Below, piece by piece: positions 27,642 to 34,112 of a stretch of DNA of 34,388 nucleotides (position 1 is its first letter; each line of letters opens with the position of its first letter). The stretch lies in assembly GCA_945898275.1 (NCBI GenBank), contig CAMDHZ010000030.1, forward strand, positions 1 to 34,388, given 5' to 3'. The DNA comes from Chitinophaga pinensis (GTDB taxonomy: Bacteria; Bacteroidota; Bacteroidia; UKL13-3). A program made the position numbers and the translations under genes. The notes under the pieces were generated by a model, which was given only the letters and a program-made list of their open reading frames with translations, was not told where the DNA came from and ran no database searches.

Positions 27642-29600
27642 ATGAAACATATCCTAAGTATTTGTGCATTTTTGTTGTTAATTACAAATTCACAAGCACA
27701 GTTTTCTTTAAAGTATCAGTTTGAACCAAACCCAGATTTTGCGAAATATTGCAAGGGGCACGACTTAAAAACCATTGACGAATTAGAAGTGATAGATGAA
27801 CGTGTGGTTGAATTTGCCTACGACAAGGACGGAAACCTTTTTGAATACTTTTATATTCATGGTGTGCGATATGTAAACTCAGAAGATGCCATAGACCGCA
27901 ACAATAAAATATATGTTTCATTTGCTAGAGCTTTTGATTTAGTAGCTTATGATGCACGGGTAATCTCTAACAGTGGCACCATACAAACCCTCGGTAAAGA
28001 TGCCCTCAAAGAAGGAACCCGCGAGGATGAAAGCAAGGTGCAATACTTTGCTGTTTCTGGCGCAGAGAAAGGTAGCTTCATAGAATACTATTATTTGGTA
28101 AAGAGAAGTCCAAATTACACCGGAACTTGGTTTGGAATGCAAAGCAATACACCAATTGCCAAGTCAATGGTGAAGATTATCAGTCCTGAAAATTTAATCT
28201 TTATTAGCAAATCTTTGGGTGGCTATACCACTTTATATGAAGATACGAGCCTTGCAGACCGCAATATGTTGGTGGGCATTCAAGAAAACATTCCAGCCAT
28301 TCCAGAAGAACCTTTTTCCAATGCAGGTGGAAATAAAATGAAACTCATGTATCAATTGTTTTACAACACTGCTAAGGGCAAGAAAAACCCTTATAACTAC
28401 GGGATTGTAAGTCAGAATATTTTTGAAAACATGGGAGGTAAACTCAACAAGGAAGAACAAAAAGCCTTAGAAAAAATCCTTAAAAACTGCAACCTTAAAG
28501 AAGCCACAGATGATGCCAGTAAAATTAGAGCTGTAGAAAACTATATCAAAAAGGAATTCACTTTTGTGGAAAATCCTGCCAATGAATTTGAAAATTTCAC
28601 TTCCATCCTAAAATCTAAAACCCTAAATGAAACGGGTGCAACGCGTTTGTTTTACCATATTTATGAAAGTTTAGACATTGAACAAGAACTAGTAGTTACC
28701 AGCAACCGATACAATATTCGCTTCGACAAGGAATTTGAATCTTATGCGTTCTTAACCGATTTCTTGCTTTACTTCCCTAAACTAAAAACCTACATGGCTC
28801 CTTTTGCACAACTGTATCGCTTGGGTTTAATCCCTGGCAGTTACCTCGAAAACTATGGTTTATTTGTGAGAAAAGTAAGTGTGGGAGAACTAAATACTGG
28901 TGCTGGAAAAGTGCAGTTCATCCCCTCCTACTCTGGCAAGCATACCCAACACAATATGTATATTACTGCCAGTTTAGATGAAAGCACAGACAGTTTAAAC
29001 ATCGATTACAAGCAAGAATACACAGGCTATTATGCGCAAAACTTTCAACCTATTTTCGACTTCATTCAGAAAGACAAGGTAAAAGAATTTGAAGAGTCTA
29101 TTGTTAAAGGTTTGCACCCAGACATCAGCATTAAAAGCATCGACATTGAAAACAAAGGTGGCGAAAACCTAATGCTTAAGCCTTTAGTGGTAAAAAGCAA
29201 ACTGAGTTCGCATCATTTTATTGAGAAAGCAGGCAACAAAATTCTCTTGAAGTTTGGCGATTTAATTGGACCACAATCCGAAATGTACCAAGAAAAACAA
29301 AGGGTATTGCCCATAGAAAATGATTATAACCGCGAATACCATCGCATCATAACATTCAATATTCCTGAAGGCTACCAAATCAAAAACCTAGAGCAACTCA
29401 ATCTCTCGGTTCAACCCTTTAAAAACAATGCAGCTGGATTTGTGGCGACTTATAAACTTGAAGGCAACAAACTCATTGTTACCTGCGACGAAGTTTACAA
29501 CCAAATTCATTTCCCTTTAGAGGAAGCAGAACAGTACAGAAGCGTTATTAATGCTGCAGCCAACTTTAATAAAATTGTATTGGTGTTGGAGAAAAAATGA
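27642..29600 (+). CDS. DUF3857/transglutaminase-fold secreted protein lacking the catalytic triad
   Basis: About 652 aa from ATG 27642, with signal peptide MKHILSICAFLLLITNSQAQ; an earlier frame start at 27609 lies inside the previous gene. The layout parallels the preceding protein: an N-terminal beta domain (RFVEFAYDKDGN-like strands, AKSMVKIISPENLIF), then NYIKKEFTFVENP and a core aligned as LNETGATRLFYHIYESLDIE. The position of the catalytic Cys is Glu330, and no His or Asp appears at the other two triad positions (SYAFLTDFLLYF, KLKTYMAPF). It is therefore probably a non-catalytic relative that binds or modulates. It starts four bases after the previous stop and overlaps mnmE by four bases (ATGA at 29597). 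Confidence 0.75.
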   Translation: MKHILSICAFLLLITNSQAQFSLKYQFEPNPDFAKYCKGHDLKTIDELEVIDERVVEFAYDKDGNLFEYFYIHGVRYVNSEDAIDRNNKIYVSFARAFDLVAYDARVISNSGTIQTLGKDALKEGTREDESKVQYFAVSGAEKGSFIEYYYLVKRSPNYTGTWFGMQSNTPIAKSMVKIISPENLIFISKSLGGYTTLYEDTSLADRNMLVGIQENIPAIPEEPFSNAGGNKMKLMYQLFYNTAKGKKNPYNYGIVSQNIFENMGGKLNKEEQKALEKILKNCNLKEATDDASKIRAVENYIKKEFTFVENPANEFENFTSILKSKTLNETGATRLFYHIYESLDIEQELVVTSNRYNIRFDKEFESYAFLTDFLLYFPKLKTYMAPFAQLYRLGLIPGSYLENYGLFVRKVSVGELNTGAGKVQFIPSYSGKHTQHNMYITASLDESTDSLNIDYKQEYTGYYAQNFQPIFDFIQKDKVKEFEESIVKGLHPDISIKSIDIENKGGENLMLKPLVVKSKLSSHHFIEKAGNKILLKFGDLIGPQSEMYQEKQRVLPIENDYNREYHRIITFNIPEGYQIKNLEQLNLSVQPFKNNAAGFVATYKLEGNKLIVTCDEVYNQIHFPLEEAEQYRSVINAAANFNKIVLVLEKK

Positions 29601-30979
29601 ACAAACACAGTTATAACCCAGACGATACCATTTGCGCTTTGGCAACCGCTGCCGGCGTGGGCGCCATTGGCGTGATACGCTTAAGTGGCAAAAATGCCAT
29701 CACCATTGCTAACCAATGTTTTGTTGGCAAAAACCTTACAAAAGTAAAGTCGCATACGGCTCATTTTGGACGCTTGGTTCAAGCAGAAACCATTATTGAC
29801 GAAGTTTTAGCAACTGTTTTTGTTGAACCTAAAAGTTATACGGGCGAGCATACCGTTGAAATCAGCTGCCATGGTTCGCCGTATATTCAACAAAAGATTC
29901 TTGAAACCTTGGTTCAACAAGGCGCTCGCTTGGCGCAACCGGGTGAGTTTACCTTGAGGGCTTTCTTAAATGGCAAACTCGATTTAACCCAAGCAGAAGC
30001 GGTGGCCGACTTAATTGCTTCCGACTCTGAGATGAGCCATAAAACGGCCATGAACCAAATGCGTGGTGGTTTCTCTAAAGAGATTGCCAACCTGCGCGAA
30101 AGGCTCATCAACTTTGCTTCGCTAATAGAGTTGGAACTCGACTTTAGCGAGGAAGATGTGGAGTTTGCAAGCCGACCAGAATTACATGCTTTGGTGAGCA
30201 ACCTGCACGAAATGTTGCGCACTTTAGCAGATAGTTTTAAAACAGGCAATGCCATTAAGAATGGGGTGCCTACCGTGATTGCAGGCAAACCCAATGCTGG
30301 GAAATCTACCTTGCTCAATGCACTCATCAAAGAAGACAGAGCCATTGTGAGTGATATTGCAGGCACCACCAGAGATACCATTGAAGAGGTGTTTAGCATT
30401 GGCGGCATCAACTTTAGACTCATTGATACTGCGGGCATACGCACACATACCGCCGATTTAATTGAAAGCATTGGCATAGAAAAAACATACGAGAAAATAA
30501 GGCTAGCCAGCATTGTAGTATACTTATTTGATGCCATTACCACCAGCCCAGAAAGCCTAGCTATAGAGTTAGCCGAATTCGATGCCCTAGAAGCAATTGT
30601 GATTCCGGTAGCCAACAAAATTGACTTAGCAGATACAAGCGTTTTAAGACAAAAGTTTGCGGCTTATGAAAACCTTATCTTGTTAAGTTCTAAAACACAA
30701 GACGGTTTGAACCAATTGTATGAGCGCTTGCGAGCCGTGGTAGAAACAGAGGTAGGCAGAGACGATGTTATCATTACCAATATTAGGCATTTTAAAGCCT
30801 TGAGCGATGCCGCACAATCCTTAGAACAAGTATTAGAGAGCATGCAATTGAACCGCACAGGCGAGCTCTTAGCCTTCGACATTCGCAAGGCCATTTACCA
30901 CCTAGGAGAAGTAACTGGCGAAATTACCAATGACGACTTGCTGAAGAATATCTTTGGGAAGTTTTGTATTGGGAAGTAG
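29597..30979 (+). CDS. mnmE: tRNA modification GTPase MnmE
   Basis: Works with MnmG (GidA) to modify the wobble uridine of certain tRNAs. The 460-aa protein has the N-terminal formyl-THF-binding domain (DTICALATAAGVGAIGVIRL, SYTGEHTVEISCHGSPYIQQ, PGEFTLRAFLNGKLDLTQAE). It then has a helical region and a G domain with GKPNAGKST (near residue 230), DIAGTTRDT, DTAG and NKID. The C-terminal FGKFCIGK includes the conserved Cys of the C-x-G-K motif. Length and domain order are normal. It is the last gene of the TPR/MORN operon, overlapping the previous one by four bases. Its stop codon TAG is followed at once by a heptamer repeat array. Confidence 0.96.
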   Translation: MNKHSYNPDDTICALATAAGVGAIGVIRLSGKNAITIANQCFVGKNLTKVKSHTAHFGRLVQAETIIDEVLATVFVEPKSYTGEHTVEISCHGSPYIQQKILETLVQQGARLAQPGEFTLRAFLNGKLDLTQAEAVADLIASDSEMSHKTAMNQMRGGFSKEIANLRERLINFASLIELELDFSEEDVEFASRPELHALVSNLHEMLRTLADSFKTGNAIKNGVPTVIAGKPNAGKSTLLNALIKEDRAIVSDIAGTTRDTIEEVFSIGGINFRLIDTAGIRTHTADLIESIGIEKTYEKIRLASIVVYLFDAITTSPESLAIELAEFDALEAIVIPVANKIDLADTSVLRQKFAAYENLILLSSKTQDGLNQLYERLRAVVETEVGRDDVIITNIRHFKALSDAAQSLEQVLESMQLNRTGELLAFDIRKAIYHLGEVTGEITNDDLLKNIFGKFCIGK

Positions 30980-31048
30980 TCCATGGTCCATGGTCCAAAG
31001 TCCATGGTCGATGGTCCAAAGTCCATAGTCGACGGTCCATGGTCCATG
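30979..31048. repeat. Heptanucleotide tandem array, unit GTCCATG
   Basis: Ten consecutive 7-base units, all in phase: GTCCATG twice, GTCCAAA, GTCCATG, GTCGATG, GTCCAAA, GTCCATA, GTCGACG and GTCCATG twice. The first base of the array is the last base of the mnmE stop codon TAG. Units contain CCATGG palindromes at their joints. It is not coding; ORFs across it on either strand are spurious. Confidence 0.9.
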
Positions 31049-31057
31049 GTTACCTCC

Positions 31058-31101
31058 GGTCGCCGAGCAAAACCCCGGTCGCCGAGCGGAGTCGAGGCGC
31101 T
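31058..31101. repeat. GGTCGCCGAGC repeat pair, left copy
   Basis: Two adjacent units of the GGTCGCCGAGC family (CCCCGGTCGCCGAGC ... GGAGTCGAGGCGC). These are much more G+C-rich than the surrounding DNA. The same words recur at 32645-32720 and 32801-32865 on the far side of the Fic gene, so the element is a dispersed intergenic repeat. Confidence 0.75.
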
Positions 31102-31113
31102 TCTGTGTTGATC

Positions 31114-31154
31114 TGTGGTATCTGTGAGGCGCCCTTTTTCTCACAGATACCACA
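31114..31154. repeat. 15-base perfect inverted repeat, TGTGGTATCTGTGAG
   Basis: TGTGGTATCTGTGAG (31114-31128) pairs with CTCACAGATACCACA (31140-31154) around an 11-base loop. A related copy of the right arm, CTCACAGATAGCACAGAT, occurs near 32604. It could act as a bidirectional terminator for mnmE and the Fic gene, or be a dispersed repeat hairpin. Confidence 0.7.
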
Positions 31155-31248
31155 TATACCTTAGTTGTTCACATATTTTGAGCCTTTTCTTTACACGATA
31201 GGTAGCTCAAGGGTGAACATGGCTAGGTTTTTACACACGAGAAGTATG

Positions 31249-31300
31249 TCATGAGTAGAAAATCAAATAATTTACTCATGATAAACGTATCATGAGTAAA
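31249..31300. promoter_or_regulatory. Operator-like 30-base perfect palindrome with an extra half-site
   Basis: TTTACTCATGATA (31271-31283), AACG, then TATCATGAGTAAA (31288-31300) is a perfect 13-base inverted repeat. A third half-site TCATGAGTA lies at 31249-31257. Three related half-sites in alternating orientation, 22 bases before the stop of the Fic gene, suggest a protein-binding site or an RNA hairpin at its 3' end. The rest of the spacer 31155-31322 shows no gene. Confidence 0.6.
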
Positions 31301-31322
31301 TTCTGATCCATTACAAACCAAT

Positions 31323-32402
31323 TTATAGTTGGTTGACATTCTGCAACAAGTTGAATAGATCGGTATTAATGTAATAGTTGTCCTTCCAAATCTTTTGCTT
31401 CCTCACTATTCCTAGTTTGTCGAGTTCATCTAAGTATTTTGAGGCAGTTTTTCTGCTCACCCCAGTTTCTTCCATTACAAAATCAATTTTGGTGTAAGGA
31501 TGACAGAACAAATTATTTAGTAAATCTTGACTGTAAATTTTGGGAAGTTCAGTTCTGATTCTATCTTTTTGGCTTCTCATTAGGTTTTTGATGCCCGCTA
31601 TTATTTTGATAGTTTGTAAGGAGGTTTGCTCCACACCATTCAAAACAAACAGCACCCATTCCTCCCAAGCGTTTTCGTTGCGTACCTTTTGCAACAAGCG
31701 ATAATAGTCGCCTTTGTTTTGGTTGATGTAGCGGCTTAAATATAAAATAGGTAAATTCAATAACCCTTCTTTTACCAAATACAGAATATTAATAATCCTG
31801 CCAGTTCTACCATTTCCATCATAAAAAGGGTGGATGCTTTCAAACTGATGGTGAATAATGGCCATTTTTACCAAAGGATCTAAATCGCTGAGTGTATTGT
31901 CGTTGATGAACTGCTCTAAGTTGCTCATAAGGGCCACCACCTCGTTATAAGTTTGCGGAGGAGTGTAAACGATTTCACCTGTTTGTTCATTTTTTAATTC
32001 AGTACCTGGTACTTTTCTAAAACCTCCATCATTTTCTTCTAGGGTTGACTGCATTTGGATGATGTGATTATTTGACAAAAATCCCATTTGTCTTACAGTT
32101 TCAAAACCCCAACGTAAGGCTTCCGCATAGTTATGTACTTCTTTGGATGCTATGGATTTAAATTCTTTCCTCAGATAATCGAACTGATATAGTTCATCAT
32201 GCGTTGTAATAATATTTTCAATGGCCGAACTATCTTTGGCCTCCTGCAAGGAAAGTGTGCTGATAAGTATACTTTCATTCGGAATACTTAAAGCAGCACC
32301 TTTCATTTCTGCCAATGCACTGCGAGCAGCAGCTGTTTTTTTCAGAATAGATTTGGATTCTAAATCCAAAATTAATGGGAGTTCGGGTATATTATATGGC
32401 AT
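31323..32402 (-). CDS. Fic family protein, class II-like with inhibitory motif
   Basis: From ATG 32402 the protein is 359 aa. An upstream GTG/ATG-type start at 32549 would lie before the predicted promoter and adds an atypical stretch. The Fic core motif HPFYDGNGRTGR is at residues 191-202 with catalytic His191. The N-terminal SSAIEN (Ser58 ... Glu62, Asn63) matches the inhibitory S/T-x3-E-G/N motif that keeps class II Fic AMP-transferases off. The C-terminal region (YTKIDFVMEETGVSRKTASK, YLDELDKLGIVRKQK) is a winged-helix domain. Expected activity is AMP transfer to a protein target. The protein is cytoplasmic, and the gene is bracketed by dispersed repeats. Confidence 0.88.
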   Translation of the reverse strand: MPYNIPELPLILDLESKSILKKTAAARSALAEMKGAALSIPNESILISTLSLQEAKDSSAIENIITTHDELYQFDYLRKEFKSIASKEVHNYAEALRWGFETVRQMGFLSNNHIIQMQSTLEENDGGFRKVPGTELKNEQTGEIVYTPPQTYNEVVALMSNLEQFINDNTLSDLDPLVKMAIIHHQFESIHPFYDGNGRTGRIINILYLVKEGLLNLPILYLSRYINQNKGDYYRLLQKVRNENAWEEWVLFVLNGVEQTSLQTIKIIAGIKNLMRSQKDRIRTELPKIYSQDLLNNLFCHPYTKIDFVMEETGVSRKTASKYLDELDKLGIVRKQKIWKDNYYINTDLFNLLQNVNQL

Positions 32403-32517: not shown

Positions 32518-32550
32518 CAAAAATAAACATAAATAAATTTAGTTACCAAA
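32518..32550 (-). promoter_or_regulatory. Predicted promoter of the Fic gene
   Basis: On the minus strand TTTG (32550-32547), a 21-base spacer and TATTTTTG (32525-32518) match the consensus at all fixed positions. Start near 32512 gives a leader of about 110 bases to ATG 32402 and excludes the longer reading-frame start at 32549. Confidence 0.55.
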
Positions 32551-32559
32551 ATAAGGGGC

Positions 32560-32770
32560 TGGCATCTGGCTGCTAGCCGGTCGGAGTTCGAGCCACCCTA
32601 TTTCTCACAGATAGCACAGATGTTCACAGATTTTGATTTAGTGCCGCTGCCCCCTCGACTCCGCTCGGGGACCGCCTTTGACTCCGCTCCTTTCGACAGG
32701 CTCAAGGACCGCCTTAATAAGTATTATGAAATACTTCTCGGCTTCGCTCGAAGGACTTTCCCATTGAAAT
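32560..32770. repeat. Dispersed repeat block, right side of the Fic gene
   Basis: Contains TTTCTCACAGATAGCACAGAT (from 32601), matching the left-side hairpin arm. After it come CCCTCGACTCCGCTCGGGGACC, GACTCCGCTCC and TTTCGACAGGCTCAAGGACC (about 32650-32712), which are variants of the CGACTCCGCTCGG family in the reverse orientation to the 31058-31101 pair. No open reading frame here looks real. This and the next entries account for most of the gene-free stretch 32403-33189. Confidence 0.65.
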
Positions 32771-32772
32771 AA

Positions 32773-32790
32773 TGCTGCTGTATAGCAGCA
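32773..32790. other. Short hairpin TGCTGCT-GTAT-AGCAGCA
   Basis: A perfect 7-base stem with a 4-base loop, lying between two blocks of the CGCCGAG repeat family. It may be the centre of a larger mobile repeat unit. No T-run follows on either strand. Confidence 0.5.
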
Positions 32791-32800
32791 CCTTGTCACT

Positions 32801-32870
32801 GGTCGCCGAGCAAAGCCCCCGGTCGCCGAGCAAAGCCCCCGGTCGCCGAGCGAAGCCGAGGCGCTGAGCG
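32801..32870. repeat. Tandem 20-base repeat GGTCGCCGAGCAAAGCCCCC
   Basis: Two exact units at 32801-32820 and 32821-32840, then a diverged third (GGTCGCCGAGCGAAGCCGAG) running into GGCGCTGAGCGC. They have no spacers between them, so this is a tandem repeat and not a CRISPR. It is G+C-rich compared with its surroundings. Confidence 0.85.
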
Positions 32871-33189: not shown

Positions 33190-33408
33190 ATGGCGCTTTT
33201 TTTAATTACTGTAAAACAAAATCATTATTCAAATGGAATCAAATTAGAAAAAGGAATGAGTGTTGAAGTTTCATCTTCATATTCTAATCCTTTGACAACA
33301 AACGGAGGACATGAAGTTCAAGATGCTTTTATGAGAAAATATGGACTTGATTTGAAAAAAAATGGTGGCAATTCAAGTGTTTGGTTGGACGTTAAAAAAA
33401 TAAGCTAA
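33190..33408 (+). CDS. DUF6140-like small protein
   Basis: A 72-aa protein with no signal peptide. ITVKQNHYSNGIKLEKGMSV followed by EVSSSYSNPLTTNGGHEVQD, AFMRKYGLDLKKNGG and the ending VWLDVKKIS resemble a small family found widely in Bacteroidota (DUF6140, from memory). Its function is unknown. The K-G-M-S-V-E-V and N-P-L-T-T-N-G-G segments are the recognisable parts. It sits 11 bases before the UDG-like gene and is likely co-transcribed with it. Confidence 0.65.
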   Translation: MALFLITVKQNHYSNGIKLEKGMSVEVSSSYSNPLTTNGGHEVQDAFMRKYGLDLKKNGGNSSVWLDVKKIS

Positions 33409-33419
33409 AACACTTATCT

Positions 33420-34112
33420 ATGAATAGTTTCCTTACAAATCTTTACTCCTCTAAATGGGACAGATTACAAACTGAAATTACCAGAATAAATTCAGATAAT
33501 GAATTAGAAACGAAACCAACAAGTCCTCTTTTACTGCTCGTTGACAACGAAGCAGAATTTTCATCGGCTGACATCAGAATTTTAATCTTTGGACAGGAGA
33601 CAAATGGCTGGTATGAAATGGATGACACCATTGAGGGCATATCTAACAACTATGACAAATTTTTTAATGGAGGTGATTGTTACAGTTATGGAGGACAATT
33701 TTGGAATGGATTTAACAGATTTATAAAGGCCCTTCAAGAAAAATATCCAAACAAAACAATAAAACCAATTTGGAACAACATTGTAAAAATTGGTTGTAAC
33801 GACAGAAAAGGTTTCCCACCAGACTATATATATGAAATGGAAAGACAACATTTTTCGGTTATAAAAGAAGAATTAAATATACTTAAACCTAATATTGTTT
33901 TATTCTTTACAGGACCAAATTATGATGGCATTATTGCTGACAATTTTGGTAAATTATCTTATAAAGCATTAACGCCATTTTCAGAAAGACAAATTTCAAA
34001 AGTACAATTAGATGGTGTTGCCTTTGCTTTTAGAACATATCATCCAAACTATTTGTGGAGAAACGACATAGACAGTTATTTTGAAAAAATCATAAGCGAA
34101 ATTAATCTTTAA
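33420..34112 (+). CDS. Uracil-DNA-glycosylase-like fold protein, function unknown
   Basis: A 230-aa protein with no signal peptide. RILIFGQETNGWY resembles the first active-site loop of UDG-superfamily proteins (G-Q-x-P/T), ILKPNIVLFFTGPNYDGII resembles the central strand with its following loop, and FAFRTYHPNYLWRND resembles the H-P-S/N-x-L DNA-binding loop. YSYGGQFWNGFNRFIKALQE lies between them. The overall order suggests the UDG fold, but the usual catalytic Asp or Asn is not certain. Family members of this kind often lie in accessory islands. Codon use is A/T-rich, and the gene has none of the iterated TTGAACC motif seen in most of the older genes. Confidence 0.5.
   Translation: MNSFLTNLYSSKWDRLQTEITRINSDNELETKPTSPLLLLVDNEAEFSSADIRILIFGQETNGWYEMDDTIEGISNNYDKFFNGGDCYSYGGQFWNGFNRFIKALQEKYPNKTIKPIWNNIVKIGCNDRKGFPPDYIYEMERQHFSVIKEELNILKPNIVLFFTGPNYDGIIADNFGKLSYKALTPFSERQISKVQLDGVAFAFRTYHPNYLWRNDIDSYFEKIISEINL

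What the first reader, a model, noticed from the sequence alone, without database searches (positions are those of the whole stretch)
31249..31300. Perfect 30-base palindrome with a third half-site downstream of the Fic gene
TTTACTCATGATA-AACG-TATCATGAGTAAA has 13-base arms, and TCATGAGTA occurs again 31 bases earlier. Such regular spacing is typical of an operator for a dimeric regulator, but it lies at the 3' end of the Fic gene and downstream of mnmE, far from any start. It might mark a lost promoter, an attachment-like site, or an RNA structure protecting the Fic mRNA.
Basis: seen in the sequence. Interest (0 to 1): 0.55.

Follow-up and report, generated by a model that had tools for sequence, protein, structure and literature searches.

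The report
Binding-site array beside a defence toxin
The palindrome is part of a short, regularly spaced array of DNA sites that the neighbouring SoFic-type Fic protein (a family of anti-phage toxins) very probably binds with its own DNA-binding domain; more relatives carry such an array in front of the gene than behind it, but here it sits behind, where ordinary promoter control is unlikely to be its job.

Summary
The palindrome is real (15-bp perfect arms, 31269-31302) and unique in its genome. It belongs to a larger object: four half-sites in two dyads 41 bp apart (31230-31302), starting 20 nt past the stop of a SoFic-type Fic gene. In 134 SoFic-like loci, arrays of at least four alternating half-sites with about 41-bp period lie upstream in 42, downstream in 14, never both; shuffles of the first 98 gave 0 of 490 per side. 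Of 107 protein windows, residues 314-325, the predicted recognition helix, best predict half-site similarity, and two classes of a helix-to-site rule held in 22 later loci. So the array is most likely the cognate DNA site of the adjacent toxin. Precedent: CccR, a Fic toxin that represses its own promoter (PMC9755527). New here: the tandem array, its covariation with the helix, and its repeated 3' placement. Its effect there is inferred: feedback on, or DNA-holding of, the toxin. The hairpin may double as a terminator.

The parts
31230..31302 (.). Half-site array, two dyads 41 bp apart, four alternating half-sites (consensus TTTACTCA(TGA))
   Evidence: chain of 4: TTTACTCA +42,-64,+83,-105 on the Fic strand, zero-based from 20 nt before the end of the stop codon; sequence printed
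31269..31302 (.). Dyad nearest the Fic stop: perfect palindrome, 15-bp arms, 4-nt loop (the reported feature)
   Evidence: (I6)
31230..31259 (.).
   Evidence: (D5: 28-nt direct repeat, 75% identity, spacing 41)
31249..31257 (+). TCATGAGTA, the third half-site of the finding
31323..32402 (-). SoFic-type Fic gene (359 aa from the ATG at 32402; the open frame runs on to a TTG at 32549). Motifs HPFYDGNGRTGR and SSAIEN present
31428..31463 (-). Codons of Fic residues 314-325 (GVSRKTASKYLD), predicted HTH recognition helix, the 12-aa window that best predicts half-site similarity
   Evidence: Helix assignment rests on below-cut-off Pfam HTH matches and on the statement in PMC10628234 that SoFic's crystal structure has a C-terminal wHTH, not on a structure of this protein
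32518..32525 (-). Candidate -7 element TATTTTTG of a Fic promoter, 123 nt before the ATG; no array there (upstream chain length 2)
   Evidence: the TTG/TAnnTTTG promoter consensus for Bacteroidota is recalled, not from a call
31269..31302 (-). Terminator-like hairpin on the Fic strand (15 pairs, only 3 G-C, tail ATTTGATTTT)
29597..30979 (+). mnmE, convergent neighbour, not part of the array
   Evidence: relatives

Best explanation
The palindrome and its extra half-sites are the cognate DNA-binding array of the adjacent SoFic-type Fic toxin. Fic dimers would dock their C-terminal winged-helix domains on pairs of inverted half-sites, and neighbouring dimers would sit 41 bp (about four helical turns) apart on one face of the DNA. 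In more relatives the same kind of array lies in front of the gene, where bound Fic would repress its own promoter. Here, as in a minority that seems to have arisen several times, it starts 20 nt behind the stop codon. There the bound complex most likely still gives negative feedback on the toxin, by holding newly made Fic on DNA in a less active form or by obstructing transcription at the gene's end. The link between array and Fic gene is shown by comparison. That Fic binds this DNA is inferred from covariation. The effect of binding at the 3' end is inference only.
For: Arrays of at least 4 alternating half-sites with 39-43 bp period: upstream 33 of 98 and downstream 10 of 98 SoFic-like loci (the window included), against 0 of 490 Markov shuffles on each side. 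Control genes: 233 genes of this genome gave 0 upstream and 2 downstream, one being this Fic and the other a simple GTCCATGG repeat; 494 genes around mnmE in other Bacteroidota gave 0 and 0. The period appears without being imposed: of 221 like-oriented site distances between 20 and 60 bp, 126 are 40-42. Residues 314-325 give the highest partial correlation with half-site similarity of 107 windows after controlling for identity over residues 10-284 (0.268; 1 of 2000 permutations). Helix-site rule on 112 loci: KRQTA with TCGACA 8 of 8 (1 of 104 others), SRTT with TGAACA 5 of 5 (0 of 107 others), RQTA with TTAACA 5 of 7 (1 of 105 others), R[ILPV]TA with TGTAxAG 44 of 58 (4 of 54 others). On 22 loci not used to set the rule: KRQTA 8 of 8, R[ILPV]TA 5 of 7; the other classes did not occur there. 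Arrays recur in cyanobacterial and proteobacterial plasmids. This genome's own SoFic-like paralogue has another helix (SRTTITKYM) and a three-site upstream chain of another motif. Precedent: CccR, a Fic with wHTH, represses its promoter through two inverted 10-bp repeats (PMC9755527, passages read).
Against: No binding data exist here; SoFic itself had no demonstrated DNA binding as of PMC10628234. Most loci fall short of the criterion: 42 + 14 of 134 have an array of four or more sites, and the RKAA class (10 of 112) gave no site class. The half-site classes and k-mers were chosen after looking at the first sets; many KRQTA loci come from one family, so they are not independent. The Mantel correlation is modest, identity in the rest of the protein keeps an almost equal partial correlation (0.257), and single residues outside the helix (301, 241, 121, 290) score higher than any in it. 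Like-oriented distances show a second peak at 30-31 bp (44 of 221) that a plain 41-bp array does not explain. A reading frame ends within 60 bp upstream of Fic in 6 of 18 downstream-array loci against 3 of 32 upstream ones, so placement may simply follow operon context. The window's second dyad is degenerate, so the array here may be decaying. The CccR operator has a different spacing (26-bp gap). Nothing here shows what a 3' array does.
Confidence: 0.75

Rival explanations
1. Intrinsic terminator or 3' stabilising hairpin of the Fic mRNA: the palindrome folds as RNA 20 nt past the stop and ends transcription or protects the 3' end.
For: On the Fic strand it scores as terminator-like (15 pairs, tail ATTTGATTTT; shuffles expect 0.1). 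RNA fold z = -5.3. Of the 11 other perfect palindromes in the genome sample, 8 lie within about 65 nt behind a stop codon.
Against: Only 3 G-C pairs and no clean T run, unlike 6 of those 8, which have A- and T-tracts at the ends of the arms. It does not explain the second dyad 41 bp away, the same arrays upstream of genes in relatives, or covariation with the HTH helix. It could be a second role.
Confidence: 0.12
2. Operator or promoter relic: the array once controlled a gene that followed Fic (as before hsdR or hsdS in some relatives) and stayed behind after that gene was lost.
For: Some downstream arrays precede genes that read like hsdR (L151, L215) or hsdS (L191) by my reading of the translations. 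The next gene is codirectional in 11 of 22 downstream loci. The window's dyad B is degenerate.
Against: Downstream arrays hug the Fic stop (first site -17 to 54 nt in 10 loci) while the next gene varies; it is convergent in 10 of 22. Downstream arrays show the -7 motif in 0 of 18 (sense) and 1 of 18 (antisense). The first dyad here is perfectly preserved.
Confidence: 0.15
3. A mobile or attachment element (MITE, REP-like palindrome, integration site) that happens to lie behind Fic.
For: The intergenic regions on both sides of Fic share repeats. Fic is patchily distributed: hits in 69 of 395 phylum genomes at E<=1e-70, with up to 74% identity in another family.
Against: Single copy in the genome. 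Homologous positions carry unrelated sequences with the same geometry, which fits co-evolving sites and not copies of one element.
Confidence: 0.03

Closest known systems
CccR autoregulation, Yersinia pseudotuberculosis (PMC9755527; passages read)
   Same: A Fic AMP-transferase with a C-terminal HTH domain binds inverted repeats as a dimer and represses its own gene; toxin and regulator in one protein.
   Different: One pair of 10-bp boxes with a 26-bp gap in the promoter. Here: a tandem array with 41-bp period, behind the gene, in the SoFic subfamily.
SoFic / Sofic anti-phage toxins (PMC12249575, passages read; PADLOC SoFic; PDB 3eqx, 9vjc)
   Same: Same domain order and motifs as the window Fic.
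   Different: In the passages read, control is by the N-terminal inhibitory helix, the CTD and a small downstream protein AS1; no DNA site is described there.
CbFic2 of Coxiella burnetii (PMC10628234; abstract, passages and the first part of the discussion read)
   Same: A wHTH Fic whose enzyme activity changes on DNA binding.
   Different: No specific site was known; random DNA was used. Sequence similarity to SoFic is low according to that paper.
Intrinsic terminators (recalled)
   Same: A hairpin just behind a stop codon.
   Different: A-T rich, without a clean T run, part of a two-dyad array.

Membership tests
SoFic-type Fic (the gene) | Fic_N + Fic + SoFic-like C-terminal domain | tested here: met
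   PF13784 92 bits, PF02661 70 bits, PF21248 89 bits, all above cut-off
SoFic-type Fic (the gene) | Catalytic HPFxxGNGRxxR and inhibitory [S/T]xxxE[G/N] motifs (motifs recalled) | tested here: met
   HPFYDGNGRTGR at 191, SSAIEN at 58 (a second chance-like match STLEEN at 119)
SoFic-type Fic (the gene) | NCBIfam NF046030 equivalog cut-off (550 bits) | tested here: not met
   399.7 bits, so a relative, not the equivalog; PADLOC SoFic 405 bits
SoFic-type Fic (the gene) | Small AS1-like antitoxin gene downstream (as in E. coli H397, PMC12249575) | not tested
   no AS1 sequence was searched for
SoFic-type Fic (the gene) | Anti-phage activity by AMPylation | not testable with these tools
   needs experiment
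Autoregulatory operator of a wHTH Fic (CccR type) | Inverted half-sites specific to the protein's own wHTH | tested here: inconclusive
   covariation with the predicted recognition helix supports it; binding itself not testable
Autoregulatory operator of a wHTH Fic (CccR type) | Lies in the promoter of the Fic gene | tested here: not met
   array is behind the stop; upstream chain length is only 2
Autoregulatory operator of a wHTH Fic (CccR type) | Two 10-bp boxes with 26-bp gap | tested here: not met
   successive half-sites start 22, 19 and 22 bp apart, period 41
Intrinsic terminator | G-C-rich stem followed by a T run | tested here: inconclusive
   passes a lax consensus, 3 G-C pairs, interrupted T tail
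MITE / REP / attachment site | Several copies in the genome | tested here: not met
   one copy

The most novel reading that the evidence does not exclude
The array is a DNA antitoxin: a cis-acting docking platform that keeps the newly made AMP-transferase bound and inactive, and that frees it when a phage degrades, occupies or out-replicates host DNA. That would explain why it is found on either flank of the gene but on both in 0 of 134 loci, why no promoter motif goes with the downstream arrays, and why site and recognition helix change together. Fits from the literature: the CTD-catalytic domain contact is needed for EcSofic toxicity (PMC12249575), and DNA shifts CbFic2 from AMPylation to deAMPylation (PMC10628234).
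Probability: 0.18. Interest if true: 0.88.

Novelty: new variant of a known kind. Interest (0 to 1): 0.62.

Why it matters
How Sofic toxins are activated upon phage infection is called elusive in PMC12249575 (passages read). The comparison gives a concrete candidate, a DNA array that varies with the toxin's own predicted recognition helix, that can be tested in laboratory E. coli. It also gives a rough helix-to-site code seen in more than one phylum, and a natural test set of loci with the array in front of or behind the gene, which separates promoter control from DNA-held inhibition.

Tried and rejected
Searching for more copies of the palindrome as a regulon signal: none in the genome and one 3-mismatch hit in 18 other genomes of the genus. 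DNA homology of the 161-bp region in 98 genomes (89 with a match at E<=1, own genome included; best non-self 0.0017) gave short stretches that I read as chance. Phage DNA similarity: one weak 27-bp hit. Rfam: no match in the window at gathering thresholds. Viral contigs with the Fic protein: no relative, with a method that finds close relatives only. The first covariation statistic (PWM correlation) produced undefined values, gave 105 of 2000 permutations as high, and put its best windows at the near-invariant catalytic motif; I replaced it by a consensus-match statistic and left out windows of mean identity over 0.8. This was a change of method after seeing a result, so the held-out set matters more than the Mantel figure. 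Structure prediction from the single sequence was poor (mean pLDDT 36.6) and is not used. The minimum number of position switches on the tree (6 strict, 9 with three-site arrays) was not compared with shuffled labels, and the weaker downstream and upstream arrays were added by a hand-made list. Rows left out before counting: of the 30 loci only the 14 strongest were scanned, and the weaker rows were not fetched. The attachment-site and dispersed-repeat ideas were dropped because the palindrome is single-copy. Seven paper searches listed no title or abstract start that describes half-site arrays in SoFic loci; only the listings were looked at, apart from three papers, and the library lacks most subscription papers.

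Full report
What is there. The reported palindrome is present at 31271-31300 and its perfect arms run to 15 bp (31269-31302, loop 4). Its 9-mer TCATGAGTA recurs at 31249-31257. The extra copy is no stray: 31230-31259 is a degenerate copy of the whole dyad, 41 bp from the first (28-nt direct repeat at 75%), so the object is an array of four half-sites in alternating orientation from 31230 to 31302. It begins 20 nt past the stop codon of a Fic gene on the minus strand and lies between that gene and the convergent mnmE. It is single-copy in the genome. The window is one whole contig of its genome; the named best relatives of its mnmE are Bacteroidota.

The gene beside it. The Fic protein has Fic_N, Fic and SoFic-like_C domains, the motifs HPFYDGNGRTGR and SSAIEN, and matches PADLOC's SoFic model with 405 bits. 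It stays below NCBI's equivalog cut-off for SoFic (399.7 of 550 bits). Its best solved relatives are 9vjc, which PMC12249575 names as the E. coli Sofic, and several SoFic entries. According to that paper, Sofic is an abortive-infection toxin (passages read). That the window Fic is toxic or defends against phages is inferred from this kinship.

The same kind of array sits beside many relatives. I scanned 98 SoFic-like loci (39-100% identity, mostly or all Bacteroidota; 14 loci, 29, 15 and 40 stretches; two of them, L024 and L181, carry identical proteins). I looked for chains of alternating inverted 8-mers (one mismatch allowed, like-oriented sites 39-43 bp apart) in about 260 nt on either side. 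Chains of four or more: upstream 33 of 98, downstream 10 of 98, the window among them; Markov shuffles 0 of 490 on each side, with chains of three in 12 and 7. Among 233 genes of this genome's sample there were 0 upstream and 2 downstream (this Fic, and the simple GTCCATGG repeat behind mnmE). Among 494 genes of 80 mnmE loci there were none. Without any imposed spacing, 126 of 221 like-oriented distances between 20 and 60 bp fall at 40-42; 44 more fall at 30-31, which I do not explain. Fourteen plasmid or phage-collection loci added later gave 5 upstream and 4 downstream arrays, among them Pseudanabaena and Geminocystis (cyanobacteria), Psychrobacter, Marinobacter and Azotobacter. Twenty-two further loci of another Bacteroidota class gave 4 and 0. 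In total: upstream 42, downstream 14, both 0 of 134, where independence would give 4.4 (Fisher p = 0.005). Four more plasmid loci read separately: one chain of four upstream (R. lusitanum), one of three (R. rhizogenes), and none in Salmonella and Ilyobacter, although the Salmonella locus shows TGTCGAT repeats by eye.

The sites follow the recognition helix. Half-site sequences differ widely between loci while the geometry stays. In 43 loci with four or more sites, I compared half-site similarity with protein identity in 107 windows of 12 residues, controlling for identity over residues 10-284. The best window is 314-325 (partial correlation 0.268; 1 of 2000 permutations as high), the predicted recognition helix GVSRKTASKYLD. 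Identity in the rest of the protein keeps a partial correlation of 0.257, and some single residues elsewhere (301, 241, 121, 290) score above those of the helix, so the statistic alone is not strong. An earlier version of it failed and was replaced. The classes visible by eye were then written as a rule. On 112 loci, with at least three matches in a flank: KRQTA with TCGACA 8 of 8, SRTTxTKYM with TGAACA 5 of 5, RQTA with TTAACA 5 of 7, RSTA with TCAAAAA 2 of 2, RNTA with TAACC 1 of 2, RKTA (the window's class) with CTCATG/TACATG 3 of 4, R[ILPV]TA with TGTAxAG 44 of 58; the KTxGxYL class 1 of 5 with AGGGCA and the RKAA class 0 of 10. That rule was made on most of the same data, and CTCATG/TACATG also occurs in 14 of 58 R[ILPV]TA loci. 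On the 22 loci fetched afterwards it gave KRQTA 8 of 8 and R[ILPV]TA 5 of 7; TCGACA was otherwise seen once in 14, in a QRQTA helix, and TGTAxAG once in 15. The other classes did not occur there and stay untested. The window's nearest relative, L151 (74%), has PTA where the window has KTA, and TTTACATGA where the window has TTTACTCATGA. The second SoFic-like gene of this genome (L234, one internal stop reported) has another helix and another upstream motif. Together this makes the Fic protein itself the likely binder.

Front or back. Upstream arrays carry the TAnnTTTG promoter element on the sense strand in 9 of 33 (shuffles 3.6). Downstream arrays carry it in 0 of 18 on the sense (shuffles 1.8) and 1 of 18 on the other strand (shuffles 3.0) (the consensus is recalled). 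Downstream arrays start -17 to 54 nt from the Fic stop (10 loci). The next gene is convergent in 10 of 22 downstream loci, the window included, against 11 of 42 upstream ones; a same-strand reading frame ends within 60 bp upstream of Fic in 6 of 18 downstream against 3 of 32 upstream loci, so operon context may influence placement. Some downstream arrays lie before genes that read like hsdR (L151, L215) or hsdS (L191). On a tree of 96 Fic proteins the position changes at least 6 times (9 downstream, 33 upstream) or 9 times with weaker arrays added by hand (17, 49); no shuffled-label control was run. So the array seems tied to the gene, on either flank, and not always to a promoter.

How it most likely works. 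Shown: the array, its geometry, its presence at SoFic loci and near-absence from the control genes, and its covariation with the helix. Inferred: that Fic dimers bind it. CccR, a Fic toxin with an HTH domain, represses its own promoter through inverted boxes (PMC9755527, passages read), which supports plain autoregulation for upstream arrays. For arrays behind the gene, as here, the effect must be something else or something more: a roadblock or terminator at the gene's end, or a docking site that holds the toxin. The second is the boldest reading the data allow. It draws on two published facts: the contact of the C-terminal domain with the catalytic domain is needed for EcSofic toxicity (PMC12249575), and DNA binding turns CbFic2 from AMPylation towards deAMPylation (PMC10628234). 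PMC10628234 states that DNA binding of SoFic had not been shown.

Against this reading. More than half of the SoFic loci have no array by these criteria; the site classes were partly chosen after the fact; related loci are not independent; the window's second dyad is degenerate; the hairpin alone would pass as a weak terminator on the Fic strand; and 8 of the 11 other perfect palindromes in the genome sample sit behind stop codons too, 6 of them with A- and T-tracts. Nothing here is a binding measurement.

Verdict. The operator idea is largely right, with the regulator probably being the toxin next door. It is a new variant of a known kind (a self-binding wHTH Fic), with an open and testable question about its 3' position.

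Noticed in passing
31054-31160 and 32590-32865: The Fic gene is flanked on both sides by the same repeats. GGTCGCCGAGCGGAGTCGAGGCG-like: 3 in the window, 0 in the 328-kb sample at up to 4 mismatches. CTCACAGATACCACA-like: 3 in the window and 8 in the 300-kb C4/C5 sample, as inverted pairs 30 bp apart.
   Followed up: partly
30979-31050: Short GTCCATGGTCC-like tandem repeat directly behind mnmE; it triggers the array detector by itself.
   Followed up: partly
L171 (G438), region behind the Fic stop: Three dyads of the GGTACATGA-N8-TCATGTACC type; the second is the exact reverse complement of the first while the spacers keep their direction, as if the dyad core had been flipped.
   Followed up: no
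L151, L191, L215, L243, L244: SoFic-type genes sit inside type I restriction-modification loci: annotated methyltransferase, Fic, restriction subunit S in Azotobacter plasmids; hsdR- or hsdS-like reading frames next to Fic in L151, L215, L191 by my reading.
   Followed up: partly
L180 (G559): Another SoFic-type gene, with a two-site dyad behind it, lies upstream of a frame that reads like mnmE, as here but in the same direction; probably coincidence.
   Followed up: no
33190-33408 (+): Small gene of the DUF6140 family, beside a 230-aa gene at 33420-34112 without a Pfam match.
   Followed up: no
G000 contig C5, 127878-127914 of the contig: A perfect 17-bp-arm hairpin inside a mechanical open reading frame of the same genome.
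   Followed up: no
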